DNA from: Candidatus Polarisedimenticolia bacterium
Lineage (GTDB): Bacteria; Acidobacteriota; Polarisedimenticolia; Gp22-AA2; AA152
NCBI GenBank assembly: GCA_035764505.1
Contig: DASTZC010000118.1
Location: 1 to 42,527 of the forward strand
DNA: 42,527 nt
Reading direction: 5' to 3'
The notes beneath the pieces were generated by a model. It did not search any database. It was not told the origin of the DNA and worked only from the letters and a program-made list of their open reading frames with translations. The first letter of the stretch is position 1. Each line of letters opens with the position of its first letter. A program made the translations under genes and the position numbers. Of this stretch, positions 2,292-20,909 are shown piece after piece.

Positions 2292-2953
2292 CCCGTCTTC
2301 CTCATCTCCCTTACCTCGAGGGCGGAGGCCACCACCGGGCCGATCTGCACCCGCCGTCGTCCCAGGACCAGGCTGATGGGCCCGCCGAAAGGCGCCACGC
2401 CGGAGATGCGGAAGCGGCGGCCCGGCTCGATCCCCATGCCGCGCAGATGCTCCAGCAGCTCTGCGTCCTGATCGAGGCAGCGCAGGATCTCGCCGCGCGC
2501 TCCTTCTTTCATCGTCGCGAGGCGGACCGGAGGCGTGTCATCGGCGGAGGGGCCGTGCAGCGCCGGAATCGGATCGCCGTGCGGATCGCGCGACGGACGG
2601 CCCAGCATCTCGAACAGCCGGCGCTCGAGCTCATCGTCGGTGGCATGCTCCAGCCGCTCGGCGTGCCGGTGCACCTCCTCCCAGCCGAATTTCAGGTGCT
2701 CGACCAGGAACAGCTCCCAGAGGCGGTGCTTGCGTACCATGCGGCGCGCCGCCGCCTCCCCTTCGGGGGTCAGGCGCACACCGCGATAGGGGGTGTGGCG
2801 CAGCAGCTTGCGGTCGGCCAGCTTGCGGATCATGCCGGTCACGGAGGCTTCGGCGACTCCCAGCCGCCGCGCGATGGCCGAGGTGCCGACCGGACGCTTC
2901 TCGCGCCCCAGCTGGTAGATCGCCTTGAGGTAGTCGTCGACTACGTCGCTCAT
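2288..2953 (-). CDS. mntR: DtxR/MntR-family metal-dependent transcriptional regulator
   Basis: This 221-residue regulator probably represses the operon it heads when Mn2+ (or Fe2+) is plentiful. Residues 1-60 form a winged helix-turn-helix (YLKAIYQLGRE, then SAIARRLGVAEASVTGMIRK). Residues 65-140 are the dimerisation and metal-binding domain, and about 150-221 form an FeoA/SH3-like tail. His76, Glu80, His103 and Glu110 match conserved DtxR-family metal ligands. The position of DtxR Met10 is Asp7, and the position of Cys102 appears to be Asp107; acidic residues at these places favour Mn2+ in MntR-type members. The ATG at 2953 is preferred to the one at 3001. The predicted -10 box lies at 2993-2998, so a start at 3001 would be upstream of the transcription start. 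The next gene is the NRAMP transporter, overlapping by ATGA. Confidence 0.9.
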   Translation of the reverse strand: MSDVVDDYLKAIYQLGREKRPVGTSAIARRLGVAEASVTGMIRKLADRKLLRHTPYRGVRLTPEGEAAARRMVRKHRLWELFLVEHLKFGWEEVHRHAERLEHATDDELERRLFEMLGRPSRDPHGDPIPALHGPSADDTPPVRLATMKEGARGEILRCLDQDAELLEHLRGMGIEPGRRFRISGVAPFGGPISLVLGRRRVQIGPVVASALEVREMRKTG

Positions 2954-2987
2954 GCCGGCCCCATTCCTGTCCGACCGAATCGAGATG

Positions 2988-3021
2988 TTAGGAATATACA
3001 AACTTCGGTTTAGGAATGCAA
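2988..3021 (-). promoter_or_regulatory. Promoter of the mntR-mntH operon with two TTAGGAAT direct repeats (likely MntR operator)
   Basis: Read on the minus strand, TTGCAT (3021-3016) and TATATT (2998-2993) are separated by exactly 17 bases, a good sigma70-type promoter. On the plus strand the octamer TTAGGAAT occurs at 2988-2995 and 3010-3017, 22 bases apart (about two helical turns). One copy covers the -10 box and the other touches the -35 box. This is a fitting place for a repressor, and the metal regulator encoded directly downstream is the obvious candidate. An 11-base palindrome CAAAACTTTTG sits just upstream at 3019-3029. Sequence and spacing are seen; binding by MntR is inference. Confidence 0.55.
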
Positions 3022-3043
3022 AACTTTTGTGCGAAAATTTTTT

Positions 3044-4945
3044 TCAGCGGCGGGCGGCTTCCTCGGGGACCCGCTCCACCCGCCGGGTCGTCCCGGTCTC
3101 GGGGGGGTGGATGATTCCCTGCTCCATCCACCGGTGCCGTCCTTCCAGGACGCGGCGCGAGACGCCGTATTTGACGGCATCCTCGTTGTGCCAGATGGCC
3201 CGGAAGCCGCCGGCGATACGGCGCCGCAGGTTGCGGCAGCAGAGATCGGCCAGCTCCACCGCTTCGGCCCCACCCGGCACCCCGGCGCGGCGCATCGCCT
3301 GGGCGCGCGACACGGCGGCGATCATGGCGAACAGGTCGGCGCCGATCTCGACGCCGCGGAACAGCAGCGCCTGCTTCTTCTCCAGCTTGCCGCCGTAGAC
3401 CATCATGGCGTGGAACAGGTTGCGCGCCAGGCGCCGGCTGGTGCGCTCCACGAAGCGCACGTGCCCGGCGAGAGGGCCGAACTCGCTGAAGCGAGGCCAC
3501 CGACCCCATCCCAGCCAGCGCGTCGGATACCAGACGGCATAGAAGGCGATCACCCCCGGCAGCGCGGCCAGCTTCTTTCCCGCCGGGACCTTGGGATCCA
3601 CCAGCGCGCCGGCGACCGCCAGGTGCCGGTCGACCGCCTCGCGCGCGATGAACAGGCGCATGATCTCGCTCGATCCCTCGAATATCAGATTGATGCGGCA
3701 ATCGCGCAGGATGCGCTCCACCGGCACGGGAGATTCGCCGCGGTCGCGCAGGGAATCGGCTTTCTCGTAGCCGCGCCCGCCGCGCACCTGCACCGTCTGG
3801 TCGGCGATCTTCCAGGCGGTCTCGGTATTCCACATCTTGGCCACGGCCGCTTCCAGCCGGATGTCCTGCTCCCCCTTGTCGGCCATCTGGGATGCCAGCT
3901 CGGAGACCGATTCCATCGCGAAAGTGCCGGCGGCCATGTCGGCCAGAATCTGCCCGATCGCCTCGTGCTTGCCGACCGGCTGGCCCCACTGCACCCGCTT
4001 GCCGGCCCAGTCGCGGCAGATCTCCAGGCAGACTTTGCCGATTCCCGCGACCGAGGCGGGAAGCGTCAAGCGACCGGTGTTCAACGTCACCAGCGCCAGC
4101 TTCAGACCGCGTCCTTCCGCCCACAGGAGGTTCTCTTTCGGAACGCGCACGTTACGCAGGCGGATGACGGCGTTCTCAATGGCGTTGAGGCCCATGAAAT
4201 GGCAGCGGTGGGTGACCTCGACTCCCGGCCAGGCGGTCTCGACGATGAAAGCGGAAATCTTGCGCGTGTCGGGGTGGCGCGCCATCACCACCAGCAGCTC
4301 GGCGACCGTGCCGTTGGTGCACCAGAGCTTCTCGCCGTCCAGGATGTAGCCCGAGCCATCGGGGCTGCGCGTGGCGGTGGTAGCGACGTTCGCCGGATCC
4401 GATCCGACGTCTGGCTCGGTCAGGGCGAAGGCGGAGATCGCGCCGGCGGCGCAGCGCGGCAGGTATTTCTTCTTTTGCTCCGGGGTCCCGAAGATCTTGA
4501 GCGGCTGCGGGACGCCGATCGACTGGTGCGCAGACAGCAGCGCCGTGACGCTGCCGTCGTGGCTCGTCACCAGCTGCATGACGCGGCAGTACTCCACCTG
4601 CGAGAAGCCAAGACCGCCGTATTCCTTCGGGATCTTCATGCCGAAGGCCCCCATCGCCTTCAGCCCATGGACCACCTCGGGAGGGATCTGCCCTTCGCGA
4701 TCGATCCGATCGGGATCCACGCTTTCCTGCAGGAAGCGCTCCATGCGCTGGAAGAATTCCTGGAACTCGGGGCGGGGCGCCTCGCCGACCCCGGGGAAGG
4801 GATGCACCAGATCAAGGCGGAAACTGCCCAGGAACAGCTCCTTCAGGAAGCTGGGCTGGCGCCATTCCGCTTCGCGCGCCTCCTCGGCGACGCGGCGCGC
4901 TTCCCTCTCGCTCGCGGTGATGACCTTCTCGGGATTCTGGCTCAC
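3044..4945 (-). CDS. Acyl-CoA dehydrogenase (FAD-dependent, long C-terminal extension)
   Basis: This 633-residue cytoplasmic flavoenzyme catalyses alpha,beta-dehydrogenation of acyl-CoA thioesters, probably in fatty-acid beta-oxidation. Family signatures appear in order: [19 protein letters not shown] near 100, the FAD/substrate motif [14 protein letters not shown] near 175, [17 protein letters not shown] in the middle beta domain, and the helical C-terminal region with [10 protein letters not shown]. The catalytic base is predicted at Glu423 within [12 protein letters not shown], the position used by very-long-chain acyl-CoA dehydrogenases. About 190 residues follow it, so the length matches the VLCAD/FadE-like class rather than the ~380-residue short-chain enzymes. 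Chain-length preference cannot be read from sequence. The start ATG overlaps the stop of the upstream SGNH-like gene by four bases, so both belong to one transcript from the promoter at 6295-6323. Confidence 0.92.
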
Positions 4946-6264
4946 GGTCGATCCTTTCCGGCGGGCGGGGGGAACGCGGGCTGCGACGAGCCGGCCGTCA
5001 TTGTACCACCCGCCGCGGGCCCCCGCAGGGCCGCGGCCAGCGCCGCGGCCGCGACTTCGTGGCCGCGGGCGGTCAGGTGCAACACTCCGGGAAAGAACAG
5101 AAGCTCCTCGTTTCCAGAATCGCGCGCGGCGCGCTGAAATTCCGGAGTGAGATCGACGAAGGCGAAGCCCATCTCCTCCGCTTTCGTCGCAAGGTACTCG
5201 CGCTGGCGCCGGCTGAACCAGGGCATCAGCTCCGCCAGCTCCGGATCCTGGAAGTCGATCTGTCCCTCGTAGGCGGTATAGGCCGAAGGAGTGTAGGCGA
5301 CAATCGGCACGAAGCGGTGCTCCCGGGACAGCCTCATGAACTCCTCGAGCGCCGCGGTCAGGATTACGGGATCGAGATCTCCCGATCGCAAAGCACGCGC
5401 CGCCCTGACCTCGTCCTGGTCCACGTTGCCTGTATTAAAAGGTATGTCTCCGCCGGGCAAGCGCAAGCGATAGTGAAAATCGGGCGGCGGCTCCTCCCCG
5501 GTCGGGATCCCCGCCACGCGGTACAGTATCCTCCTGATTCCATGATGGATCGCCCGCGATCCGACCACCACCAGGTTGTAGGCATAGCTGGTCCTCCCCA
5601 GGGGGCGCCCTTTCAGGGCACGCCGCGCCGGGGCGCCGGCGCCGGCTCCCACCGCCTGGCGATATTGCTGGAAGCTCTGGGCGTCCCGCAGATCGTTGCC
5701 TTCGTAATAGTTGAGGATCACGACGCGTGGCTGTCGAGCCAATCCGAAGCGCCTGAGGATCTCGAGGTGCTCGTAGAGGCCGATCCCGGGGCTTCCCAGG
5801 TTGATTGCCGAAGCGTCGAGCCGCGAGGCGACCAGGGCCGGCCAGCTCCGGTCGGGCTCCACTCCCGTGCACCAGGTGAACGAATCTCCCAGGGCCACCA
5901 GCTCGCGCTGCCGCGGCTGCGCCGCGCTGCTCCACCTGCCGTTGCAGAAACCCTCCTCGTCCATGACGACCGTGTGGACGAAATGATCGTCCGGCACGTC
6001 GAGCGTCACTTTTGCGCGCGGACGGAAGAGACGCATCTTCCGGGGAGGTCCGCCATCCGTGCGCTCCAGGAAGCGCACCGTCGCCTCCGTGGGAAATCCG
6101 AGGCGCGCCGCAATCTGCTCGCGGGCGGCGGGATTGAAGTCGACGAGCAGAAAAGGCGGGATGAGCGACGGGAAGAGGCGCAGGCACAATTCGAGAAGCA
6201 GCAGCGTGATAGGGAATACGACCAGGATCCAGGCGATTCGCGACAATGCTCTTCGTGCGGGCAA
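4942..6264 (-). CDS. Membrane-anchored SGNH/GDSL-like hydrolase
   Basis: This 440-residue protein starts at a TTG preceded by GAGAGGG. Residues 8-28 ([21 protein letters not shown]) form a signal anchor, so the rest probably lies in the periplasm. The SGNH hydrolase blocks are visible: LGDSFTW with the predicted nucleophile Ser128, a Gly block in [12 protein letters not shown], and Asn in [12 protein letters not shown]. The C-terminal block reads [14 protein letters not shown] with His396 and His402. The usual catalytic Asp three residues before the first histidine is Gly here, so the enzyme may use an altered triad or act only as a binder. Family members remove or transfer acyl groups on lipids, sugars or cell-wall polymers; the substrate is unknown. 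It shares a transcript with the acyl-CoA dehydrogenase (ATGA overlap), which hints at lipid or acyl metabolism. Confidence 0.72.
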
Positions 6265-6294
6265 GTAAACCCTCTCGGGGAATGACCGACCGCA

Positions 6295-6323
6295 ACGCTA
6301 AGCCGCCCGCCGGGGGCTGTCAA
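6295..6323 (-). promoter_or_regulatory. Sigma70-type promoter for the SGNH / acyl-CoA dehydrogenase operon
   Basis: On the minus strand, TTGACA (6323-6318) is followed after 17 bases by TAGCGT (6300-6295). The start codon of the first gene (TTG at 6264) lies about 30 bases downstream. The -35 box is a perfect consensus; the -10 box matches four of six positions. Confidence 0.5.
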
Positions 6324-6438
6324 CCCTTGCGGGAGGAGGCTGTCGGAGGGGCCGGACGCGGCCGGAAAGGCTTCACAGCCGGGCGTCTCTGATAAGATTG
6401 GAGGCCTATTGCGCGCGACGCGACGGGAGAATGAAGGA

Positions 6439-8478
6439 ATGGGCCCGATCGAACCCCCCAAGCTCAAGCCTGGAATGACCCTCGAAAAAGCAGAAGCAGC
6501 GGCGGCACCGGAAAAGACCCGCGCCGACGCCGGCCATGTCATCACCGGCAAGGCCCTTGTCTTCTTCGATCCCAGGAATCCGGGCAAGAAGCTCGACGCG
6601 ATCGACACCGATCAGATCACGCCCGCGGCCGACTGCGTCTCCGAGAGCCTCGACACGCTCGACGAGCGCTGGAAGGCGGGTTCGTTCCGCTACCTGATGC
6701 CCGATTTCGGAGAGCGGGTGCGGCGCGGAGAGAACTTCTTGATCGCCGGGGATCGCTTTGCCATCGGCTCGTCGCGTGAGATGTCGCCGGCGGGGCTCAA
6801 GGGGGTGGCGGAAGCGGCCGGGCTGGAGATGGTGATCGTCTGCGGCAACAACATGGGGGACATCTTCCGGCGCAACGCCTTGAACCTGGGGCTGGAGGTC
6901 GTCCAATCGCCCGAGGCGGTCGCCGACGCGCGCGATGGCGACGAGTTCCGATTCGACACTCACAGCCGCGAGCTGGCGAATGTGACCCAGGGGAGGCAGT
7001 ACACGGTCAAGCCGCTCACGGCGCGGGAGGAGGAGATCCGGCGCGGCGGCGGCATCTTCGCCGTCGGCCGGCGCGATTTCCTTGAATCGCTGCGCAATCC
7101 GCCCGCGATCGGGTTCCCGCCGGAGCGCGAGGCGCGGCGCATGACCTCGACCGAGCAGATCGTCTGGGCCCACCGCGTCGACAAGACGGCGCGTGTCGCC
7201 CCGGGCGAGACGCTGCGGGTCTACGCCGACCTGCTCCCCGCCTCGGACGGCACCGGTCCCTTTTCGATCTACACCTTCAACCGGATTACCGGGGGGAACA
7301 CGATCTTCCCGCGGCGTGCCGCTTTCGCCAGCGACCACTTCGTCTTCACCGGCAAGGAAGCGGACGAGAGGCAGACCTCGATCTCGCGCCAGTTCGCCAA
7401 GGTGCACGGCATCGAGTCTCCTTATTTCGCCACGCCGGGCGACGGGATATTCCATTTCTATTTCCCCGAGCAGGGGCTCATCGTCCCGGGGGGCTTCTAT
7501 CCCGGCGCCGATTCCCACAGCCGAGCCTATGGCGCCTATGGCGCGGTGGGACTCGGAGTCGGCAGCACGACGCTGGGCTACGGCTGGGCCACGGGGGCGA
7601 TTTACTTCACGCTCGCGGCGCAGCGGCGCGTGGTCTTCGCGGGAAAGCTGCAGCCCTGGGTGAACGGCAAGGACGTGGTGCTGGAGCTGCTGCGGCGCTG
7701 GGGCGCGGCGCAATCGCGCGGCATGTGCGTGGAGTTCGTCGACGCCGATCGTCAGCTGCCGATCCCGTTCCGCAACACCATCGCCAACATGATGGCCGAG
7801 GGAGAAGCGCAGAACGGCATCTTCGCCCAGGACGAGATCACCACCCGGTGGTTCGCGGAGCGCGGCATCTCGTTGCCCTATCCGCAGGTCCAGCCGGGCG
7901 CGGAGGCGCGGTACGAAGTTGATGAGACGTTGAAGCTTCAGGACGTGGTGCCGATGGTGGCCAAGCCCTACTCTCCGGGCAACGCCTTCCCGGCGGAAGA
8001 GATCGCGAAAGAGCGGATCACCTTCGACAAGGCGCTCATCGGGTCGTGCACCAACGGCGGCTATGAAGATCTGCTCGGCGCGGCGCTCGTCCTGCGTGCG
8101 GCGCGCGATGCCGGCGCGAGCCGCATCGCGGGAAAGACGGAATTCGTCATCTTCCCGGGCAGCGGACTGGTCAAGAAGCGGATCGAGATGCCGGAGGCGC
8201 GGCTGGCAGGAGAGTCGATCGGTGAAGTCTTCCGCAGCGTCGGCGGAGTCATCCGGGAATCTTGGTGCGGTCCCTGCTTCGGACAGGGCCCCGACGCCCT
8301 GACCAAAGGGCAGCGCGCCGTCACCAGCTTCAATCGCAACTGGCAGAACCGGATGGGAGTCGGAGGAGAAGGGTACCTGGCGAGCCCGCAGGTGGTGGCG
8401 GCCTCGGCGCTCCTCGGCTACATCGCCTCTCCATCGGATCTCGGCCTCGCCTGGAACCCCGAGCGCTTCGCAGTCTAG
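6439..8478 (+). CDS. Aconitase-superfamily hydratase with swivel domain first (permuted LeuD-LeuC-like)
   Basis: This is a 679-residue predicted [4Fe-4S] dehydratase/isomerase of a hydroxy-acid, related to aconitase, homoaconitase and isopropylmalate isomerase. Residues ~37-230 form the small swivel domain, with the substrate-binding motif GSSRE (Ser111-Ser112-Arg113). Residues ~235-675 form the large catalytic domain, with the motif GADSHS (Asp358-Ser359-His360), a Cys ligand in GSCTNG (Cys537) and the CGPC pair (Cys610, Cys613). All three cluster cysteines are present, so it looks active. Classical aconitases have the reverse order, and IPM isomerase has two subunits. The ATG at 6439 has GGGAG nine bases upstream. 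A TTG at 6409 in the same frame is also possible and would add ten residues. The gene stands alone between divergent and convergent neighbours, so context does not name the substrate. Aconitate-like, methyl-malate-like or homoaconitate-like substrates are all possible. Confidence 0.85.
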   Translation: MGPIEPPKLKPGMTLEKAEAAAAPEKTRADAGHVITGKALVFFDPRNPGKKLDAIDTDQITPAADCVSESLDTLDERWKAGSFRYLMPDFGERVRRGENFLIAGDRFAIGSSREMSPAGLKGVAEAAGLEMVIVCGNNMGDIFRRNALNLGLEVVQSPEAVADARDGDEFRFDTHSRELANVTQGRQYTVKPLTAREEEIRRGGGIFAVGRRDFLESLRNPPAIGFPPEREARRMTSTEQIVWAHRVDKTARVAPGETLRVYADLLPASDGTGPFSIYTFNRITGGNTIFPRRAAFASDHFVFTGKEADERQTSISRQFAKVHGIESPYFATPGDGIFHFYFPEQGLIVPGGFYPGADSHSRAYGAYGAVGLGVGSTTLGYGWATGAIYFTLAAQRRVVFAGKLQPWVNGKDVVLELLRRWGAAQSRGMCVEFVDADRQLPIPFRNTIANMMAEGEAQNGIFAQDEITTRWFAERGISLPYPQVQPGAEARYEVDETLKLQDVVPMVAKPYSPGNAFPAEEIAKERITFDKALIGSCTNGGYEDLLGAALVLRAARDAGASRIAGKTEFVIFPGSGLVKKRIEMPEARLAGESIGEVFRSVGGVIRESWCGPCFGQGPDALTKGQRAVTSFNRNWQNRMGVGGEGYLASPQVVAASALLGYIASPSDLGLAWNPERFAV

Positions 8479-8540
8479 CCACGGGAGCCGAGACCCCGTT
8501 ACCCCGACCGGCTCTTCGCGGGACCCTGCGCCGCCCGCCC

Positions 8541-11500
8541 TTAAGACTGGGCCCGTCTTCCCCGGATCAGCTCAAACATTTTCAGTGCGGCAGGTATGCT
8601 GGCGCTCACCGCGCCGATGAACGCGGTCGATAGGTTGAGAAACTGAGGCTGCGTGAGGAAGAACACGAAGGCCACGACGATGGCCGCAGCCACGCTGGTT
8701 CCGCGGATCGTGTGCCAGGGCTGCCAGGCCGCCTTGCGCATCCCGCCGATCCCCTCGCCGCGTCCGAGAAGGATCACGTACCTGGCGAAGCTCTCGTTCA
8801 TGGCTTTCAAGGCCGGGTTGCGCGCGATCAGCCCCTTTTCCCACAGGCTGCGAATCACCGAAGGCCTGGCGTTGATGAACGGGTCGTCGGCGAGGTCGAA
8901 CAAGGCCAGCTTTTCCTCCACCGAGCAGGTCGCCCAGAGGGAGCGGTAGTAGGCCTGCGCCCGCCCGAGGACCTCGCCAATCACCTGATCCTTGCTCGAG
9001 AGTCCGTCGACAGGCAGAGACAGGATATCCATTCCAACGCGGCGCAGCGTGGCGGTTGGGCTGCATTCCAGCCGCAGCGCCACGGCAGCCTCTGCGCGTA
9101 GCTTCGCTCGCTCAATCGCCTCCTGCAGCCGCTCCCTCGAAACGCCGTCCGATTCGTCCTCGGTTGCATTGAACCTTCGGCTGAAGGTGCTCCAGACCCG
9201 CGCCCAACAATCCAGGCTCGCGGCGTCAATCCGCTCCCGGCTCTTGCGCGGGCTCGGCTCGTTTCCCTTGCCGGGCTTCGCTTCATCCTCGGCGCCGCCA
9301 ACCGGAAAGCTCATGGGGTCGGCAGCCGAGCAGACCACGATGCGGCACTTCATGAGGAGAAGCTGTTCCAGCAGCCGCATCTTCCAGCGGTTGCGAGCCG
9401 GATCGTCCTGCAGCGTCTCGAAGTGGTCGATGGCCACGACCTTCCCGGACTGCGGCGCCAGCTGCGCCAGCGTCTCGTCCCATTTCCCCGCCGCCTCGAC
9501 CTGGCGAATGTCGATCCGCTGGAACTCGGGCCCCGCGATAAGCCGGCTCTTTCCAGAAAGCGGCGGGCCGAGCACCAGGGTATTCACCTGGACTTCGCCC
9601 AGGACCCTGTTCTCAGCAGGTCGGGCCGAAGGGAGCGACAGGTCGATGCAGAACAGCTTGCGCAGCACCGAGCGCACCAGCAGGTAGAGAAGCACGGGCA
9701 GGAGAGCGAACCCCAGCAACACTCCAAGCCATCCCGGCGCCGTGGTCGGCAACGACAGGAGAGGCACCTCGGATCCCAGGGGGAGATGATCCCCCGCCCC
9801 GCCGGGTCCCTTCACGAGGGACACGTGGCCCGGACCGACAATCCATTGGCGCGTGCAGTCATCCGAGGAGTCATGCAGGAGATTGTGCGTCTGCACCGAA
9901 AACTCGTTGTAGAGGGGCCGAATCACCTCGAGAACCTCGTCGAACAGATGTCCCCGGGAGGCCTCCTCGAATCGGTGCTTGCTGGAGGTGCAGCGGGGCG
10001 TGTCATTTCGGGGAGGGAGAACCGTGGTATTGAAGAAGAATCCATAATAAAGGTCGGTGTTGTCCTGCAGCCGATGCGCCACGAAGGAAGGAGTCGCCGG
10101 GATGTCTCGATAGTACTGGTTGACTCTCTCCCTGCGCTCGGCGATGGCGCGCGCCAATCCGAGCTGTCCGTGCTTGACGAGTACTTCCATCTCCGTGTCA
10201 TGGGTCGCCCGGAAACAGCCGATCGCGGGCACCACACTGAGGAGAACGACCAGAGAAACGGCGAGCAGGACGTAGGTCGTCAGGGAGCTCGGCCAGGGGA
10301 AGGATCCTCTCAGTGAGCCGATGCGAGGCCATCGGATGAGCCTGCGCGGGAAGGCGACCAGCGGAACGCATGCGCCCATGACGACGCCTTGTAGAATCGT
10401 CACGGCCAGGATCCCGTCCCGTTGCGGCTCCCGATGGGCCTGGAGCCGCTCCAGGATACCGAGCGCAAGGAGCACCATGGGGAGGGCCGTCAGGGCCGCG
10501 AAGTAGGGTGCTCGCCGCCACGCGGAATCCGTCTCGGCCTTCAACCTGACGCAATTCAGCAGGAGCGCAAACGGCGGCAGTGCGAATGCCATGAGGGGAA
10601 TGTGGTGATGAACCGTCGTGAACAGCCGGCTCGCGCAGATCAGGATGAGCACGAGGTTGGCCGCCAGCAGCTGCCGCTCCGCCGGCGCGCGCCGTGCGTC
10701 GTGCCACATCCACTCGGGGCCCGAGAAGCATAGGATGAGAGCCGGCAGCAGGAGGAGGCATGCGTACAGAAGGTAGAGAATGATCGAGGCGGAGAGAAGC
10801 TCCAGGTTCGCGGTGCACTCGATCTCCTTGTCGCGGAATGTGACGAGGGTCCAGGGCACGTCCTTCATCGGAGTGACATACAGACGGTGTCCGCGCCCTG
10901 TATAGGACACGTCGACCCAATCGGCCGCCCGCGCGCTCACCCTGGCCCGCAGGGCGCGGCTCTGGTCGCACTCGGCGAAGAAGTCCTCGACGAGCACCCG
11001 CTTCGAGTCGGAATGGAAGAGGAGGCGTCCCTGCTCGTCGAGGATGGCATAGCCGAACCCGGGCGGAGCCACGACATCGCGCAAGGAGACGAGGTGAGGG
11101 ATCAAGGTCTCCACGCAACCTCCCCGGCAGGGACCGGGTCTCGATAGGACCGACAATGACCGGCCCGTATTCGCCGACAGGACGGTATCGAGGAAAAAGG
11201 GCTTGTCTTCTCCGGCCATCGGCCACCCGCGCTCCTCGTCGATGGTCCGGAAGTAGTCCCGCTCGCTGACGTCGATATTCGCGCGGGTCCGTCGCTCGGT
11301 CGTCCATTTGGCGAACTGCTTGCCGGCCCTCTTATCGGCGCCACCTGCCGCCGACGCCCTCGCCCCCGGGTGGACCAGCGTGAGAACTTCGAAGTAAGGG
11401 GCGCCGCGCTCGATGTCGAGCCAGGCCGGAGGATGCGCGAGAATCCTCTCCTGCTCTTGCTCCTTGAAGTCCGAGGAGGAACGGTCGAAGCGGTTCAGCA

Positions 11501-12599
11501 TCGCGGTCAGCTGCGTGAGTTCGAGATGAAAGTGTTTATCCATCTCCTCCGCGAACCTCTGGAGCTGCAGGTCCAGCTTGCCCCGCAATTGCACGTAGCT
11601 CCACATGTCGAGAACGAAGAAGACTGCCAGGCCGGTCAGCAGGAGGACGGAAGCGCTGATGAAGATGCCGTCCCTGATGCCCAGACGATCGGTCGCCTGC
11701 AGGCTCCAGAGCTTGACCAGCGGCCAGCTCGCGGTAATCGTGATGAAGAGAAACAGGATGACGATCAGCAAGGTGTACGAGAGCGACGTGCTCTCGGCCC
11801 GGAAACGGTCCTTCCGCACCAATCCGCACAGGCTCCAATTGACCACGGACTCGGACGAAGGAGCTTCCGGGCGCCCCTTGGAGAGGGAAACCCTGACCGG
11901 CTGAACGAAGAGGCGGTAAGGGGCGCCGCCCAGGTTCAAGAGGTAGACGTCGGTCGAGGCCAGGACCTTGCTGTACGGCACCTCTTCCCCTGATTCATTC
12001 GTGACGACGCCGATTTGCGTGAGCCTGGGTCCCGAGTTCGCCCGCCGGTAGATGACCTTCGTGTCGTTGTCAACGATGAGCAGATCGTCGAAGGGCTGGT
12101 CGTTGATCGTGCCCAGCAATTCGTCCAGGGCCGTCGCGACTCGGAAGCTCGCGACACAGCGATCACCAGCCGCCCCCGTGAACTGGAATTCCAATCTGAA
12201 TTGGCCCCCTTCCTGAATCGGTGCCAGGACCACGCCGGGCTCCTGCTTGTGACGGGGCTCCAGGCTCGGGGCACCGACAAGCTTCAGCGCAGGCGCAAGC
12301 TCGAGCTGCTCCTTCAGGTTCTTCGAGAACATTTCCTTGTTGCAGGTGCTTCCCGATTTCGATTTCGACGCGTCCCAGGACTTGCTCACCATGTTTCCCA
12401 GCACGTCATTGGCATAGTTCTCGATCATCAGCGTGAGCCGGTCGCTCTGGGCGCCCAGAAGCCGGAAGTTTCGGGTAATCAGATAGGTCCTTTGGCGGGA
12501 TATATAGATGTAGGCAAACGTCCCGAAGGAGATCGCCAGCAACATCAGGACCATGGCAACGACCCCGAAGGTCCGCAGGTCGGTGCTCCGTCCGCGCAT
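8541..12599 (-). CDS. Giant multi-pass membrane protein: two sensor-like exported regions, P-loop NTPase, winged-helix-like tail
   Basis: This 1352-residue protein is not one I can assign to a named family. Visible layout: a membrane helix at 12-33; an exported region at 35-270 that looks PAS/Cache-like; helices at 272-293 and 311-331; a second exported region at 335-590 resembling a double-Cache sensor (SERDYFRTIDEERGWP near 445, FGYAILDEQGRLLFHSD near 515). Then come about six to seven helices between 600 and 792, a third exported region at ~795-950 and a helix at 956-976. The cytoplasmic part holds an NTPase with Walker A GPPLSGKS (1011-1018), a Walker B-like strand VVAIDHFE (Asp1058, Glu1061) and VVCSAADP near 1088. 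A winged-helix-like stretch follows (~1222-1275, CSVEEKLALFDLADDP), then two terminal hydrophobic helices (1300-1316, 1320-1340). The start ATG follows AGAGGAGGAG. Inference: a membrane receptor coupling an external signal to a STAND/AAA-like NTPase. It is monocistronic. Confidence 0.75.
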   Translation of the reverse strand: MRGRSTDLRTFGVVAMVLMLLAISFGTFAYIYISRQRTYLITRNFRLLGAQSDRLTLMIENYANDVLGNMVSKSWDASKSKSGSTCNKEMFSKNLKEQLELAPALKLVGAPSLEPRHKQEPGVVLAPIQEGGQFRLEFQFTGAAGDRCVASFRVATALDELLGTINDQPFDDLLIVDNDTKVIYRRANSGPRLTQIGVVTNESGEEVPYSKVLASTDVYLLNLGGAPYRLFVQPVRVSLSKGRPEAPSSESVVNWSLCGLVRKDRFRAESTSLSYTLLIVILFLFITITASWPLVKLWSLQATDRLGIRDGIFISASVLLLTGLAVFFVLDMWSYVQLRGKLDLQLQRFAEEMDKHFHLELTQLTAMLNRFDRSSSDFKEQEQERILAHPPAWLDIERGAPYFEVLTLVHPGARASAAGGADKRAGKQFAKWTTERRTRANIDVSERDYFRTIDEERGWPMAGEDKPFFLDTVLSANTGRSLSVLSRPGPCRGGCVETLIPHLVSLRDVVAPPGFGYAILDEQGRLLFHSDSKRVLVEDFFAECDQSRALRARVSARAADWVDVSYTGRGHRLYVTPMKDVPWTLVTFRDKEIECTANLELLSASIILYLLYACLLLLPALILCFSGPEWMWHDARRAPAERQLLAANLVLILICASRLFTTVHHHIPLMAFALPPFALLLNCVRLKAETDSAWRRAPYFAALTALPMVLLALGILERLQAHREPQRDGILAVTILQGVVMGACVPLVAFPRRLIRWPRIGSLRGSFPWPSSLTTYVLLAVSLVVLLSVVPAIGCFRATHDTEMEVLVKHGQLGLARAIAERRERVNQYYRDIPATPSFVAHRLQDNTDLYYGFFFNTTVLPPRNDTPRCTSSKHRFEEASRGHLFDEVLEVIRPLYNEFSVQTHNLLHDSSDDCTRQWIVGPGHVSLVKGPGGAGDHLPLGSEVPLLSLPTTAPGWLGVLLGFALLPVLLYLLVRSVLRKLFCIDLSLPSARPAENRVLGEVQVNTLVLGPPLSGKSRLIAGPEFQRIDIRQVEAAGKWDETLAQLAPQSGKVVAIDHFETLQDDPARNRWKMRLLEQLLLMKCRIVVCSAADPMSFPVGGAEDEAKPGKGNEPSPRKSRERIDAASLDCWARVWSTFSRRFNATEDESDGVSRERLQEAIERAKLRAEAAVALRLECSPTATLRRVGMDILSLPVDGLSSKDQVIGEVLGRAQAYYRSLWATCSVEEKLALFDLADDPFINARPSVIRSLWEKGLIARNPALKAMNESFARYVILLGRGEGIGGMRKAAWQPWHTIRGTSVAAAIVVAFVFFLTQPQFLNLSTAFIGAVSASIPAALKMFELIRGRRAQS

Positions 12600-12850
12600 G
12601 GTCTCCTCCTCTTGGGTGCCTTTCCGAAGGACCCGGATCCGGCGGTTGCCGCGAGCTTTTAGGCGAATTGGACCTTCATGTCCCGCCTGGACGAACTTTC
12701 AGGGCGCAAGTGGAGATGGAGCCTCTATACTAGGTAAACGCGTCGGGAGGGGGATTTGCACGGACTATTTATGGAGGGGTCGGTACCCGCCGCCTTCGAG
12801 TGCCTGACGCCTTGCATGCGAACCCCCGGAAGGGCAGGGATTCGGGAGCC

Positions 12851-13396
12851 ATGAAGAAGTGTCCCGGATGCGGCCTGGAGATGCCCGGGAGCCAGGCCGT
12901 CTACGATCAGTATTACAACGCTTCACCCGAGTGCTGGTCGGTCTATACCGAAGTCCTGGGGGCCGAGTTCCAGAACGCGCCCCTCTTCGGCCAGGTCCAT
13001 ATGATGACCGTCGACACGTACGCCGTGCAGCATGCCGGCGGTCCCCATCCCGACAAGTCGGTCTTCATTCACCTGGCGGGTCTCTATCTGACGCAGGAGC
13101 GGGGAATCGCGCCCACCAAAGTTCCTCCGCAACTCCAGCGACTCGCCACGGAGATGAAGGTGTGGCCGCACTTCACTCCGCCGGAGCTCATCGGGCCCTT
13201 GACGGTTTTCGACGTGGCGACGGCCGGGTCGCCGGTGGCGCATGCGCGGATCGTCCGGGATTGGGCCGCGCAGGTCTGGCGGGCGTGGAGCGATCATCAT
13301 GCCGCCATCGCCGCGCTGGTCTCGCAGTATGTGGAGTTGCCCGCCGCGGCCTCGCAGCGCGCGAGCAGCCCGCCGGCCTCCTCGACCTCGACCTAG
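12851..13396 (+). CDS. DUF5946-like protein with N-terminal zinc finger
   Basis: This 181-residue soluble protein starts at ATG 12851 after GGGAG. It opens with a zinc-ribbon half-site, KKCPGCGLEMP (Cys4, Cys7). An aromatic-rich motif follows with ASPECWSVYTEVLG, then VDTYAVQHAGG, FIHLAGLYLTQERG and a C-terminal helical part with RIVRDWAAQVWRAWSDHH. The arrangement of CPxCG, ECW and VDxYAVQH matches my recollection of the DUF5946 family, whose function is unknown. Conserved Cys and His in these motifs suggest a bound metal. It is followed after seven bases by a four-helix membrane protein and then a methyltransferase, so the three are likely one operon. The C-terminus is Ala/Ser-rich and low in complexity (SQRASSPPASSTST). 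Confidence 0.7.
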   Translation: MKKCPGCGLEMPGSQAVYDQYYNASPECWSVYTEVLGAEFQNAPLFGQVHMMTVDTYAVQHAGGPHPDKSVFIHLAGLYLTQERGIAPTKVPPQLQRLATEMKVWPHFTPPELIGPLTVFDVATAGSPVAHARIVRDWAAQVWRAWSDHHAAIAALVSQYVELPAAASQRASSPPASSTST

Positions 13397-13403
13397 ACAC
13401 AAG

Positions 13404-13886
13404 ATGCTGGAAGCCTCGAGGTTCCTTCTGGTTCCCCTGCTCGGCGCGGCCGGATGGGTGCTGGCGACCCGGCTGCCGCGCGCCAGCGCGATCCTGACGC
13501 TGGCGGCGGCTTTGGGCCTGCTGGCGATCTGGAGCCTGGGACTCGCGTCGGGCCTGTTCGGGCTGCCGCTGGGCATCCATCGCAGACTGGCGCAGATCCT
13601 GGTCATGTCCGCCTGGGTCGCCGCACCCTTCGCGACCGGGACTTTCGTGAGCCGCGGCGTGGTCGACCAGGAGAACCGGGAGCTGCTGGGCGCGCTCACC
13701 GTCGTGCTCTCCCTGATTCTGGTGATGGGCGCCTCGTTCACCGGCATGATGGGACCGACGCACGGCGCGCTCGGCTCCGGCAATTCCTCGCGCTTCATGG
13801 TGCTGCACCTGATCGCGCTGCCGCTCCTCAGCGGCCTCGGGCTGGCCGCCTGGGCGTATCTGGCCTGGCGGTCGCGGGAGTCCTGA
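13404..13886 (+). CDS. Four-helix membrane protein of unknown function
   Basis: The 160-residue product starts at ATG 13404. An earlier in-frame ATG at 13242 would overlap the upstream gene by more than 150 bases and is rejected. Hydrophobic segments lie near residues 5-20, 28-50, 60-80 (AQILVMSAWVAAPFATGTFV) and 90-110 (GALTVVLSLILVMGASFTGMM), with a last one at 130-152 (LHLIALPLLSGLGLAAWAYL), so four to five helices. A Gly/His-containing loop (MGPTHGALGSGNSSRF) separates the last two. No enzymatic motif is apparent. The gene is seven bases after the DUF5946-like gene and four bases before the methyltransferase, so it is surely cotranscribed with both. No function can be given. Confidence 0.8.
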   Translation: MLEASRFLLVPLLGAAGWVLATRLPRASAILTLAAALGLLAIWSLGLASGLFGLPLGIHRRLAQILVMSAWVAAPFATGTFVSRGVVDQENRELLGALTVVLSLILVMGASFTGMMGPTHGALGSGNSSRFMVLHLIALPLLSGLGLAAWAYLAWRSRES

Positions 13887-17350: not shown

Positions 17351-18075
17351 GAGATGTTCCGGCTCCTTTTCCGCAGGCGCCTCTTCAGATGCAGGGCGCG
17401 ATCCATGACCCCGGAGCCGAAGACCCGGGGGCGATAGTCTAAACCGCTTCCGGCCCTGCGTCCCCACGTGGTCAGTCCGAGCGTTCCGATTTGGTCGAAC
17501 CAGGGACCGGCACGAAAGGATTCCTCGGCCACTTTTCGGGGGCCGGGATGGGCCGCGAGATCGGTGGAGTCGTGCAGGAGCACGAAGCCTCCGGGCTCGA
17601 GATGCGGCAGCCAGGCCTCCAGGTCCCCGCGGGCCGCCTCCTCGGAATGGTCGCCGTCGATCAGCAGGATGCGGATCGGGCCGCACCAACCAGCCGCATA
17701 CTCCCTCGATGGGGCGACTTCGACGCTCACCCACTCCTCCGCGCCGAAGTGGGCCAGATTCTCCCGCAGCTCCGCCTCGGTGCGATAGACATGGGGATCC
17801 ACTGCGAACACACGGCCGGCGCCGCGCCGGCGCAGGCCGAGCGCGAAGCAGAGCGTCGAGCGGCCGCGAAACGAGCCGATCTCCACCACGGCCCCGCTTC
17901 CCGGGCTTTCCCGGGCGAGGCGGTAGAAGAAGGCCGCCTCGTGACCGTAGAGGTAGCCGTCCACCTGCGACAGAACCGGGGCAATCTCGCCGCTCCCCGC
18001 GAAGACGATGCTTTCCGCGGCCTCGAGACGACGGCGCAGGGCGTCCTTCCAGGTTCCTATCTTTCGGACGGTCAT
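17347..18075 (-). CDS. Class I SAM-dependent methyltransferase (Methyltransf_24 type)
   Basis: This 242-residue cytoplasmic enzyme starts at ATG 18075, preceded by GGGAG at a spacing of five. The glycine loop is VVEIGSFRGRSTLCFALGL (near 70), the acidic end of strand 2 is VFAVDPHVYRTEAEL, and the active-site strand reads RILLIDGDHSEEAARGDLE, followed by LEPGGFVLLHDS. The pairs IDGDH and LHDS are typical of the Methyltransf_24 group that includes cephalosporin-hydroxylase-like and glycan O-methyltransferases. The C-terminus is very basic (KRRLRKRSRN), possibly for binding nucleic acid or membrane. It overlaps recD2 by four bases, so the two are cotranscribed. The acceptor is unknown. Confidence 0.85.
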   Translation of the reverse strand: MTVRKIGTWKDALRRRLEAAESIVFAGSGEIAPVLSQVDGYLYGHEAAFFYRLARESPGSGAVVEIGSFRGRSTLCFALGLRRRGAGRVFAVDPHVYRTEAELRENLAHFGAEEWVSVEVAPSREYAAGWCGPIRILLIDGDHSEEAARGDLEAWLPHLEPGGFVLLHDSTDLAAHPGPRKVAEESFRAGPWFDQIGTLGLTTWGRRAGSGLDYRPRVFGSGVMDRALHLKRRLRKRSRNIS

Positions 18076-18230
18076 TGAAACTCCCGGGAGGGACCTCGCC
18101 GGTAAGGAAATACACGCCCAGGGCCTTGGCGCCGGCCCAGGCCCGACCCTGCTGGAGTAGAATACGTCACCCGCCGTCATCCCCAGCCAGCGGGGGGAAT
18201 CTTCGCATCTTTCATCCGGACGCCGGAGCC

Positions 18231-20909
18231 ATGATCGGCAAGACGATCAAGCATTACAAGATCCTCGAGAAGATCGGCGCCGGAGGCATGGGCGAGGTCT
18301 ATGCGGCGGAGGATCTCAAGCTGCACCGACGCGTGGCCCTGAAGATCCTCCCCTCCGGCGTGACCGGCGATCCGGCCCGCCGGGCCCGCTTCGCGCTGGA
18401 AGCCACGGCGGTCGCCGCCCTGAACCATCCCAACATCGTGACGGTCCATTCGGTCGAGGAAGCGGACGGCATCCACTTCATCACCATGGAGCTGGTGGAG
18501 GGGAAGACCCTCTCGGAGATTCTTCCGAAGAACGGCCTTCCCCTGCGACGCTTCTTCGACCTGGCGATCCCTCTCGCCGATGCGGTCGCGGCGGCGCACC
18601 GGACCGGCATCGTCCATCGCGACCTGAAGCCCGACAACATCCTGGTGGGCTCCGACGGCCGGCTCAAGGTCCTCGATTTCGGCCTGGCGAAGCTGGAGGA
18701 GGCGCCCCGGAAAGGCGCAGAAGCCAGCGCGCTGCCGACGCGGCACCTGACGGAGCAGGGGCAGATCCTGGGGACGGTGGCTTACATGTCGCCCGAGCAG
18801 GTCGAAGGAAAGCCGGTCGATTTCCGGACCGATCTCTTCTCGCTCGGCATCGTGCTGTACGAGATGGCCACGGGACGCCGGCCTTTCCAGGGGGACACGC
18901 AGGCTTCGATGATCTCGTCGATCCTGCGCGATTCTCCCTCCTCGGCGACCGACCTGAACCCTCAGCTGCCACGGCACTTGAGCCGGATCATTCGCCATTG
19001 TCTTGCGAAGGATCCCGAGGAACGCGCGCAGAGCGCGCAGGATGTTCGCAACCAGCTGGCGGATCTGCGCCGCGAGGTGGACTCAGGCGTCATCGAGGCG
19101 ACCTCCACACCGTCCGCGGCCGTACCTTCGCGGACCCTCTCCTGGATCGCGGGCGGCCTCGTCGTGGCCGTGGCCGCCGTGGCGGCCGCCGGTTTCTTCG
19201 TGCTCTCCCGCTCCCGCGGGTCCGGGCCGGCCGCCCGCTCCGCCGCCGGACTGCAGGGAACGCAGATGAAGGTCACCGATCAGGCGGGCGAAGAGGTGAC
19301 GCCCAGCCTGTCGCCCGACGGGAAAATGGTGGCCTACGCGGGGAGAGCCTCCGGGAACTGGGACATCTACGTGCAGAGGGTCGGCGGCAGCAACGCCTCG
19401 AACCTGACGGCGGACTCGCCCGACGACGACATCGAGCCGGCCTTCTCTCCGGATGGAGAGCGGATCGCGTTTCGCTCGAAGCGGGACGGCGGTGGGATTT
19501 TCGTCATGGGCGCGACGGGCGAGTCGGTCCTGCGACTCAGTGATTTCGGCTTTCGGCCCGCCTGGTCTCCCGATGGCGAGAGAATCGCCGTGCAGACGGC
19601 CGACTTCACGAATCCCACCGGCCGCCCGGCGCTCAGCGAGCTGTGGGTCATCGAGGTGAAGACGGGAAAGAAGCAGCGGATCTTCGAGGGGGATGCCGTG
19701 CAGCCGGCCTGGTCTCCGGACGGAAGCCGCATCGCTTACTGGGCGATTCCGCTCGGCGGCGGGCAGCGCGACCTGTGGACGATTGCCGCCGCGGGAGGAA
19801 CGCCCGTCCCCGTCCTGCAGGACCCGCCTCTGGACTGGGCGCCGGCCTGGTCGCCGGACGGGAAATTCCTCTTTTTCTCGAGTGAGCGCGGTGGGATTAT
19901 GAATCTATGGCGAATCTCGATCGACCAGGCCACCGGGAAGAGTCTCGGCCCGCCGGAAGAGGTGACACGAGGCGCCTCCACTTCGATTCATTCGCCGGCC
20001 GTTTCCCACGACGGGCGCCGCATCTCCTATGTCGCTTCGGTAGAATTCTCCGCCTTACGGCGCGTGTCGCTGGACCTGGCCAGGGGGAAGGCGACCCTGG
20101 ATCCCAAGCCGCTCCTCAGGGGATCGAGCGCCATGATCTGGCCTTCCGTCTCCCCCGACGGCAGGTCGCTGGTTTACACCACGCGATCGGCGGGAAGCCG
20201 GGTCGGCGTGGTACGCGAAGAGATCGTCGTCATGGACCTGGCCAGCGGCTCGCGGCGCAGCATCGCCGCTTCCGACTCGCGCAACCGGATCGCCCATTGG
20301 TCGTCCCAGGAGGATCGTATCGCTTTCGCCTCGGACCGGGGCGGCGATTACGAGATCTACACGGTCCGCTCCGACGGCAGCGATCTGCAGCCTCTGGACG
20401 ACGCGATCCGCAACACGATTTACCCACTCTGGTCACCCGGGGGAGACCGCCTGCTGATCACCCACATGACGCACGTTCTGACGCAATCCATGGTGCCCTG
20501 GCCAAGAGGCAACGCCCCGGTGGAGGAAATTCCGCCGCTCAGCTCCACCGCCGGCGTCGTTCCGCACGATTGGTCGCCTGACGGATCGACGATTGCGGGC
20601 ACCCTCAACCGCCAGGGAGCCGAGCAAGGCGGAATCGTCCTCTATCACGTCGCGTCGAAGACTTATGAGCAGCTCACACCGCGCGGTGAGAGTCCTTTCT
20701 GGCTTCCCGATGGACGGCTTCTCTACTCAGTCGATGGCGTCCGGTCCCTGTTCGTCTTCGACCCGAAGACACGCAAGGAGCGGGAGCTCCCTATCGACCT
20801 GCCGGGCGGGTTCGACTCCTTCAACGTAGCCATGTCGCGCGACGGCAAGAGCGTCTATCTGGTCGAGGTGGATTCCGAAGCGGACATCTGGCTCATGGAC
20901 GTCCAGTAA
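18231..20909 (+). CDS. Membrane Ser/Thr protein kinase with C-terminal TolB/WD40-like beta-propeller
   Basis: The 892-residue protein starts at ATG 18231 (MIGKTIKHYKILEKIGAGGMGEVY). Residues 1-270 are a complete Hanks-type kinase: glycine loop GAGGMG (16-21), the VALK lysine Lys38, catalytic loop HRDLKPDN (~127-134), DFGLAK, and activation segment GTVAYMSPEQ. A helix at ~304-325 (IAGGLVVAVAAVAAAGFFVL) crosses the membrane. From ~345 to the end are PD40-type repeats with the recurring SPDG motif (TPSLSPDGKMVAYAG, AFSPDGERIAF, AWSPDGSRIAYW, SVSPDGRSLVY), predicting a periplasmic propeller. This kinase-plus-propeller layout is common in Acidobacteriota. It is inferred to sense an external ligand or cell-wall state and phosphorylate cytoplasmic proteins. 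It is divergently oriented from the methyltransferase-recD2 operon. Confidence 0.93.
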   Translation: MIGKTIKHYKILEKIGAGGMGEVYAAEDLKLHRRVALKILPSGVTGDPARRARFALEATAVAALNHPNIVTVHSVEEADGIHFITMELVEGKTLSEILPKNGLPLRRFFDLAIPLADAVAAAHRTGIVHRDLKPDNILVGSDGRLKVLDFGLAKLEEAPRKGAEASALPTRHLTEQGQILGTVAYMSPEQVEGKPVDFRTDLFSLGIVLYEMATGRRPFQGDTQASMISSILRDSPSSATDLNPQLPRHLSRIIRHCLAKDPEERAQSAQDVRNQLADLRREVDSGVIEATSTPSAAVPSRTLSWIAGGLVVAVAAVAAAGFFVLSRSRGSGPAARSAAGLQGTQMKVTDQAGEEVTPSLSPDGKMVAYAGRASGNWDIYVQRVGGSNASNLTADSPDDDIEPAFSPDGERIAFRSKRDGGGIFVMGATGESVLRLSDFGFRPAWSPDGERIAVQTADFTNPTGRPALSELWVIEVKTGKKQRIFEGDAVQPAWSPDGSRIAYWAIPLGGGQRDLWTIAAAGGTPVPVLQDPPLDWAPAWSPDGKFLFFSSERGGIMNLWRISIDQATGKSLGPPEEVTRGASTSIHSPAVSHDGRRISYVASVEFSALRRVSLDLARGKATLDPKPLLRGSSAMIWPSVSPDGRSLVYTTRSAGSRVGVVREEIVVMDLASGSRRSIAASDSRNRIAHWSSQEDRIAFASDRGGDYEIYTVRSDGSDLQPLDDAIRNTIYPLWSPGGDRLLITHMTHVLTQSMVPWPRGNAPVEEIPPLSSTAGVVPHDWSPDGSTIAGTLNRQGAEQGGIVLYHVASKTYEQLTPRGESPFWLPDGRLLYSVDGVRSLFVFDPKTRKERELPIDLPGGFDSFNVAMSRDGKSVYLVEVDSEADIWLMDVQ

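What the first reader, a model, noticed from the sequence alone, without database searches (positions are those of the whole stretch)
8541..12599. A 1352-residue membrane protein coupling Cache-like sensors to a P-loop NTPase
Seen: three exported regions, about 12 hydrophobic helices, a clean Walker A (GPPLSGKS at 1011-1018) with a Walker B-like strand ending Asp1058, a winged-helix-like region with CSVEEKLALFDLADDP, and two terminal hydrophobic helices. Known: Cache domains sense small molecules in histidine kinases and chemoreceptors, and STAND-like NTPases act as molecular switches. Inference: this is a one-protein signal receptor whose output is NTPase-driven conformation or oligomerisation rather than phosphorylation. 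It has its own strong ribosome site and no histidine kinase, GGDEF or methyl-accepting domain.
Basis: partly seen in the sequence, partly recalled or inferred. Interest (0 to 1): 0.8.

Follow-up and report, generated by a model that had tools for sequence, protein, structure and literature searches.

The report
Cache receptor with degenerate STAND core
This gene encodes a very large bacterial membrane receptor that joins two outside chemical-sensing (dCache) domains to an inside switch domain descended from STAND ATPases but mostly worn out, a combination found in at least three bacterial phyla that has no family name in the libraries searched.

Summary
The 1352-residue ORF is real (minus strand, 12599 to 8541). 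It belongs to an unnamed family of 1200-1900 aa receptors in Acidobacteriota, Bacteroidota and Alteromonadaceae. Both large exported regions are dCache domains (structural Z up to about 14 and 13). The cytosolic region has an AAA+/STAND-type P-loop core followed by a STAND-type winged helix and a transmembrane hairpin; profile-profile comparison with nSTAND-type NTPases gives E=2e-8, against 0.3 or more for shuffled controls. The Walker B acidic partner is missing even here (DHFE against DEYE). The P-loop is poorly conserved; the winged helix and final hairpin are the most conserved cytosolic parts. The best reading is a ligand-gated receptor with a non-hydrolysing, pseudo-STAND platform as output, not an NTPase-driven switch. 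The gene stands alone, without a conserved partner, and is missing from its class-mates; a sister genus has the same flank without it. The full-text library held no description of a Cache-STAND fusion. Ligand and output partner are unknown.

The parts
8541..12599 (-). Whole gene, 1352 aa, 12 predicted TM helices
   Evidence: ORF and translation; homologues of similar length in three phyla
12605..12610 (-). Ribosome-binding site AGGAGG, 5 bases before ATG
   Evidence: sequence read directly
11796..12494 (-). Exported region 1 (residues 36-268): dCache domain
   Evidence: AF2 model matches PctA, TlpC, Tlp1 and sensor-kinase dCache domains over model residues 36-267, Z up to 14.6
10800..11603 (-). 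Exported region 2 (residues 333-600): dCache_1 domain with conserved RxYF and LFHSD motifs
   Evidence: Pfam dCache_1 E=8e-4 here, 1.2e-6 in a relative, 6 of 10 members; model residues 333-600 match 3lif, Z 12.9; conservation
10215..10784 (-). Six-helix central membrane block (TM4-TM9, residues 606-795)
   Evidence: hydropathy; poorly conserved
9735..10211 (-). Exported region 3 (residues 797-955), no known fold assigned, poorly conserved
   Evidence: topology, conservation; not modelled
9300..9608 (-). Degenerate STAND/AAA+ type P-loop core (residues 998-1100)
   Evidence: AF2 model versus AAA+ ATPases, Foldseek best E 3.6e-3, VIA Z 10.5; hhalign versus nSTAND-type NTPases
9546..9569 (-). Walker A-like GPPLSGKS (residues 1011-1018)
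   Evidence: sequence; at the homologous site only here and in L080 among 49 proteins
9417..9440 (-). Walker B-like strand VVAIDHFE (residues 1054-1061): Asp kept, next residue His instead of an acidic one
   Evidence: aligned with DEYE of an nSTAND1-type NTPase
8745..8987 (-). Winged-helix domain (residues 1205-1285), most conserved part of the family
   Evidence: hhalign versus the winged helix of STAND NTPases, E=1.4e-7; conservation
8565..8711 (-). C-terminal transmembrane hairpin (TM11-TM12)
   Evidence: hydropathy; conserved W1295 and above-average conservation

Best explanation
It is a stand-alone transmembrane receptor. Two periplasmic dCache domains (shown by predicted fold) bind small molecules (inferred). 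Binding shifts the attached helices, as in other dCache receptors, and the shift passes through the membrane block to a cytosolic platform (inferred). The platform is a STAND-derived P-loop core with a winged helix (shown by profile and predicted fold), anchored in the membrane at both ends by TM10 and the TM11-12 hairpin. The core has largely lost its ATPase motifs, so it most likely works as a non-hydrolysing pseudo-enzyme: ligand state changes the exposure or oligomer contacts of the conserved winged helix and hairpin, which then recruit or release an unidentified cytosolic partner (inferred). This copy may still bind a nucleotide as a structural or inhibitory cofactor.
For: dCache: Pfam dCache_1 in 6 of 10 members; Foldseek to PctA/PctB/TlpC/Mlp24 with probability 1.00 and E down to 1e-5, and to an integrative McpB model at 3.6e-6; VIA Z up to 14.6 for region 1 and 12.9 for region 2. 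STAND/AAA+ core: VIA Z 10.5 for the top row over model residues 29-180, all listed rows AAA+; hhalign E=1.7e-8 over 193 columns against nSTAND-type proteins, column-shuffled controls 0.3 or more, reversed control 0.59; a profile search of genomes picked up the winged helix of an nSTAND1 and an nSTAND2 protein at E 4e-4 and 8.5e-4. Degeneration: Walker A at the site in 2 of 49, no acidic residue after the Walker B position in the aligned members. Output site: mean top-residue frequency 0.51 for the winged helix and 0.41 for the last hairpin, against 0.24 for the P-loop segment. No partner gene recurs across phyla.
Against: No ligand, partner or phenotype is known. AF2 models rest on five sequences (mean pLDDT 62 and 56). 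The NTPase core on its own reaches only E=2e-3 to 4e-3 in hhalign. The Alteromonadaceae clades are strongly altered in this region. Walker A is intact in this very protein and in L080, more than chance gives at that site (0.02 expected), so nucleotide binding may have been kept in some lineages. Conservation values also depend on alignment quality.
Confidence: 0.5

Rival explanations
1. Active STAND-like switch: ligand binding outside triggers NTP exchange or hydrolysis and oligomerisation of the cytosolic domain.
For: Intact GPPLSGKS and D1058 in this protein; the same motif at the homologous site in L080; STAND-type winged helix.
Against: 47 of 49 proteins of the family lack Walker A; no acidic residue follows the Walker B position; only about nine residues separate the GKS from the next strand, against about 17 in an nSTAND1 protein.
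Confidence: 0.15
2. Membrane-tethered transcription regulator: the winged helix binds DNA under control of the Cache domains, in the manner of CadC or ToxR.
For: The winged helix is the most conserved domain; membrane-bound one-component regulators exist (established knowledge).
Against: The domain resembles the winged helix of STAND NTPases, which usually serves intramolecular and oligomer contacts (established knowledge), and it is followed at once by a TM hairpin; no conserved adjacent target gene.
Confidence: 0.15
3. An invader-sensing or defence protein related to the inactive-STAND (iSTAND) components of conflict systems.
For: Inactive STAND domains are known as sensor parts of MoxR-vWA and BREX systems (PMC7159879, PMC8195603, PMC12839542); patchy occurrence and fast divergence.
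Against: No PADLOC hit for ten members; no effector, MoxR or vWA neighbour recognised; stable chromosomal place beside recBCD-type genes in several Alteromonadaceae; none found on plasmids.
Confidence: 0.1
4. A transporter or channel whose central helices are gated by the dCache domains.
For: 12 TM helices; Cache domains also occur in calcium-channel subunits (PMC4822843).
Against: The central TM block is among the least conserved regions, with no column conserved above 60%; no transporter family match.
Confidence: 0.07

Closest known systems
dCache chemoreceptors and sensor kinases (PctA, TlpC, Mlp24, rpHK1S-Z16)
   Same: Two exported regions with the dCache fold between TM helices.
   Different: Output is not an MCP, kinase or cyclase; two dCache domains in one chain plus a third exported region; Pfam score below the curated cut-off.
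nSTAND1/nSTAND2-type STAND NTPases
   Same: P-loop core with winged helix right after it.
   Different: Walker motifs mostly lost, no repeat superstructure, membrane-anchored at both ends, fused to Cache sensors.
iSTAND components of MoxR-vWA and BREX systems (BrxB, BrxF, PglW)
   Same: STAND domains with eroded Walker motifs used as non-enzymatic modules (PMC7159879, PMC8195603, PMC12839542).
   Different: Those work inside multi-gene defence loci; this is a lone receptor with Cache domains. 'Cache' does not occur in the two eLife papers.
KdpD-like or other sensor receptors with P-loop parts
   Same: Large membrane sensor with an unusual cytosolic nucleotide-fold module (from memory, a lead only).
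   Different: No histidine kinase here; not tested as homologous.

Membership tests
dCache (Pfam dCache_1) sensor | dCache fold in an exported region between TM helices | tested here: met
   VIA Z 14.6 (residues 36-267) and 12.9 (333-600); Foldseek probability 1.00
dCache (Pfam dCache_1) sensor | Score over the Pfam gathering cut-off | tested here: not met
   19.5 bits against 45; E=8e-4
dCache (Pfam dCache_1) sensor | Binds a small molecule | not testable with these tools
   needs ligand screening
STAND NTPase | AAA+-type P-loop core fold | tested here: met
   VIA Z 10.5, all listed rows AAA+; model confidence is low
STAND NTPase | Winged helix directly C-terminal to the NTPase | tested here: met
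   hhalign E=1.4e-7, shuffled controls for the whole module 0.3 or more
STAND NTPase | Walker A GxxxxGK[ST] conserved in the family | tested here: not met
   present in this protein and L080 only, of 49
STAND NTPase | Walker B with two acidic residues (D[DE]) | tested here: not met
   DHFE here; next position not acidic in aligned members
STAND NTPase | GxP motif in the helical bundle | tested here: inconclusive
   not evident in alignments; region poorly aligned
STAND NTPase | C-terminal repeat superstructure (TPR, WD40, LRR) | tested here: not met
   only about 65 residues with a TM hairpin follow the winged helix
iSTAND conflict-system component | Eroded Walker motifs in a STAND core | tested here: met
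   true of the family as a whole, only partly of this member
iSTAND conflict-system component | Located with MoxR-vWA or BREX genes | tested here: not met
   neighbours are Nramp, acyl-CoA dehydrogenase, aconitase, RecD2; no recurrent partner
Histidine kinase / GGDEF / chemoreceptor | Corresponding output domain | tested here: not met
   no such Pfam or NCBIfam match in ten members

The most novel reading that the evidence does not exclude
A separate class of transmembrane signalling receptors, present in at least three phyla, in which dCache domains drive a membrane-clamped pseudo-STAND/winged-helix platform, an output type absent from the published list of Cache outputs.
Probability: 0.5. 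Interest if true: 0.75.

Novelty: new variant of a known kind. Interest (0 to 1): 0.58.

Why it matters
Cache domains are described as the largest superfamily of extracellular sensors in prokaryotes, and a survey lists their outputs as chemoreceptors, kinases, cyclases, phosphatases, transcription factors and channels (PMC4822843); a STAND-derived output is not among them. If it signals, it would extend STAND-type switching from cytosolic immunity and regulation to direct sensing across the membrane, and would give another case of a worn-out ATPase kept as a signalling scaffold. Members in culturable marine Alteromonadaceae make it testable.

Tried and rejected
Single-sequence scan of genome contigs found nothing; Pfam, NCBIfam, PADLOC and PHROGs gave no whole-length family. 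Sequence search of the PDB gave only noise with the single protein; the C-terminal profile's best hit, adenylyl-sulfate kinase (E=0.047), covers the helix and sensor-1 region and was not followed as a family assignment because the winged helix points to STAND. A gene-neighbourhood hunt found only local synteny; an acyl-CoA dehydrogenase near three members is two different situations (adjacent in L005/L033, a 22%-identity relative kilobases away in the window). A contaminating contig was considered and rejected: flanking genes match genus and family mates at 75-81% DNA identity, in the same order in G003. A first maximum-likelihood tree did not finish; FastTree was used.

Full report
WHAT IS THERE. 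The ORF at 8541-12599 is on the minus strand, begins with ATG at 12599 and codes for 1352 residues. AGGAGG stands five bases before the start. Hydropathy gives 12 helices at about 13-31, 277-295, 312-330, 606-624, 645-663, 666-684, 698-716, 730-748, 777-795, 957-975, 1297-1315 and 1327-1345. With the N terminus inside, this puts 32-276, 331-605 and 796-956 outside and 976-1296 inside; loop charges mostly agree.

FAMILY. The single sequence matches no family over its length: Pfam gives dCache_1 at 516-587 with E=8e-4, below its cut-off, and a weak CHASE4; NCBIfam, PADLOC and PHROGs give nothing. Searching whole genomes with the C-terminal part and then with growing alignments found homologues of similar length and architecture: in other Acidobacteriota, in Bacteroidota, starting from Parachryseolinea (11 of 241 genomes of that order), and in Alteromonadaceae (28 of 148). 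That the window lies in Acidobacteriota follows from its kinship with G260, whose contig is titled Acidobacteria. Forty-nine proteins over 900 aa were collected. They are mostly single copy and very divergent (end branches about 1.1 changes per column). In the tree the window protein sits with G271, G306 and G307 (support 96) inside an Acidobacteriota group (100), though long branches call for caution.

SENSOR PART. Two AF2 jobs were run with the window sequence and four permitted relatives. The N-terminal model (mean pLDDT 62) matches dCache domains of chemoreceptors and sensor kinases: Foldseek probability 1.00, E 1e-5 for PctA; VIA Z 14.6 over residues 36-267 and 12.9 over 333-600. Across ten members, six hit dCache_1, best E 1.2e-6. 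Region 2 has near-invariant R447, Y449, G524, H529, Y566 and G568. Region 3 (797-955) and the six-helix block 606-795 are the least conserved parts and were not modelled.

CYTOSOLIC PART. The C-terminal model is weak overall (pLDDT 56) but its core aligns with AAA+ ATPases, Z 10.5, rmsd 3.5 over 131 residues for the top row (Foldseek best E 3.6e-3). The family profile weakly detected an nSTAND1-type and an nSTAND2-type protein in other Acidobacteriota, at the winged helix behind the NTPase. Profile-profile comparison against a small set of such NTPases gave E=1.7e-8 over 193 columns, with Walker B, sensor 1 and winged helix in register; 30 column-shuffled controls gave 0.3 or more and the reversed control 0.59. 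The winged helix carries most of the signal (1.4e-7); the core alone reaches about 2e-3. One caveat is that two proteins of the comparison set were themselves found by the profile.

IS IT AN NTPASE? Walker A is complete at the homologous site only here (GPPLSGKS) and in L080 (GVPIVGKS); 0.02 such matches would be expected there by chance in 49 proteins, so these are probably remnants of an ancestral P-loop (inference). All others have lost it. Walker B reads DHFE here where the nSTAND1 relative has DEYE; the residue after the Asp is not acidic in the aligned members. Only about nine residues lie between GKS and the next strand, short for a normal helix 1. Conservation is highest in the winged helix (0.51) and the last TM hairpin (0.41), and low in the P-loop segment (0.24). 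The simplest account is that the core is a scaffold and that the winged helix and hairpin carry the output.

CONTEXT. Flanking genes in the window are ordinary: Nramp, acyl-CoA dehydrogenase and aconitase on one side, a methyltransferase, RecD2 and a protein kinase on the other. In the sister genus G003 the block corresponding to window 1602-8502 is collinear and the match stops just past the aconitase gene; the receptor is absent there and from the other genomes searched in the class (1 of 41 has it, this one). So it was gained here or lost repeatedly; its slightly lower G+C (63.5% against 66-68% for the neighbours) hints at gain. In several Alteromonadaceae it keeps one chromosomal place between a small conserved gene and recBCD-type genes. 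No partner gene recurs across phyla. No plasmid copy was found.

COMPARISON WITH THE LITERATURE. Inactive STAND domains are a known idea: in MoxR-vWA conflict systems (PMC7159879, PMC8195603) and as BrxB, BrxF and PglW parts in BREX (PMC12839542). The Cache survey PMC4822843 lists known outputs and names no STAND domain, although its data set was drawn from proteins with known outputs. A combined search for dCache and STAND terms listed papers with one or the other, none with both. The library is not complete, so this is absence from what was searched.

VERDICT. The proposed NTPase-driven output is not supported for the family and is doubtful for this member. It works like a ligand-gated receptor with a pseudo-STAND output platform; it should not be filed as a STAND NTPase, since defining motifs were tested and not met. 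What it senses and what it talks to are open.

Noticed in passing
L038:68-5977 (+): A family member of 1970 aa appears to hold two tandem copies of the degenerate NTPase-like segment and a much enlarged N-terminal exported region.
   Followed up: no
L039:6659-11626 (-), L082:5954-10257 (+), L083:129-4636 (+): In these three loci the family gene is split between two open frames, either true two-gene forms, decay or assembly errors.
   Followed up: no
L080:5898-9875 (-): The only other member with a complete Walker A motif at the homologous site, from Bacteroidota; its nearest relative L030 lacks it.
   Followed up: partly
36397-38832 (+): 812-aa protein with a weak HerA/DUF87-type match at its N terminus.
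   Followed up: no
17709-20909 (+): Protein kinase with WD40-like (PD40) repeats; many partial DNA matches elsewhere in the same genome suggest a large paralogous family.
   Followed up: no
12859-13494 (+): Divergent small ORF starting MKKCPGCG, reminiscent of a DUF5946-type start, but without a Pfam hit and with low third-position G+C; may be broken or not a gene.
   Followed up: partly
L005:3962-5668 and L033:11631-13328: An acyl-CoA-dehydrogenase-like gene lies directly upstream on the same strand in two related Acidobacteriota; could be shared synteny or an operon.
   Followed up: partly
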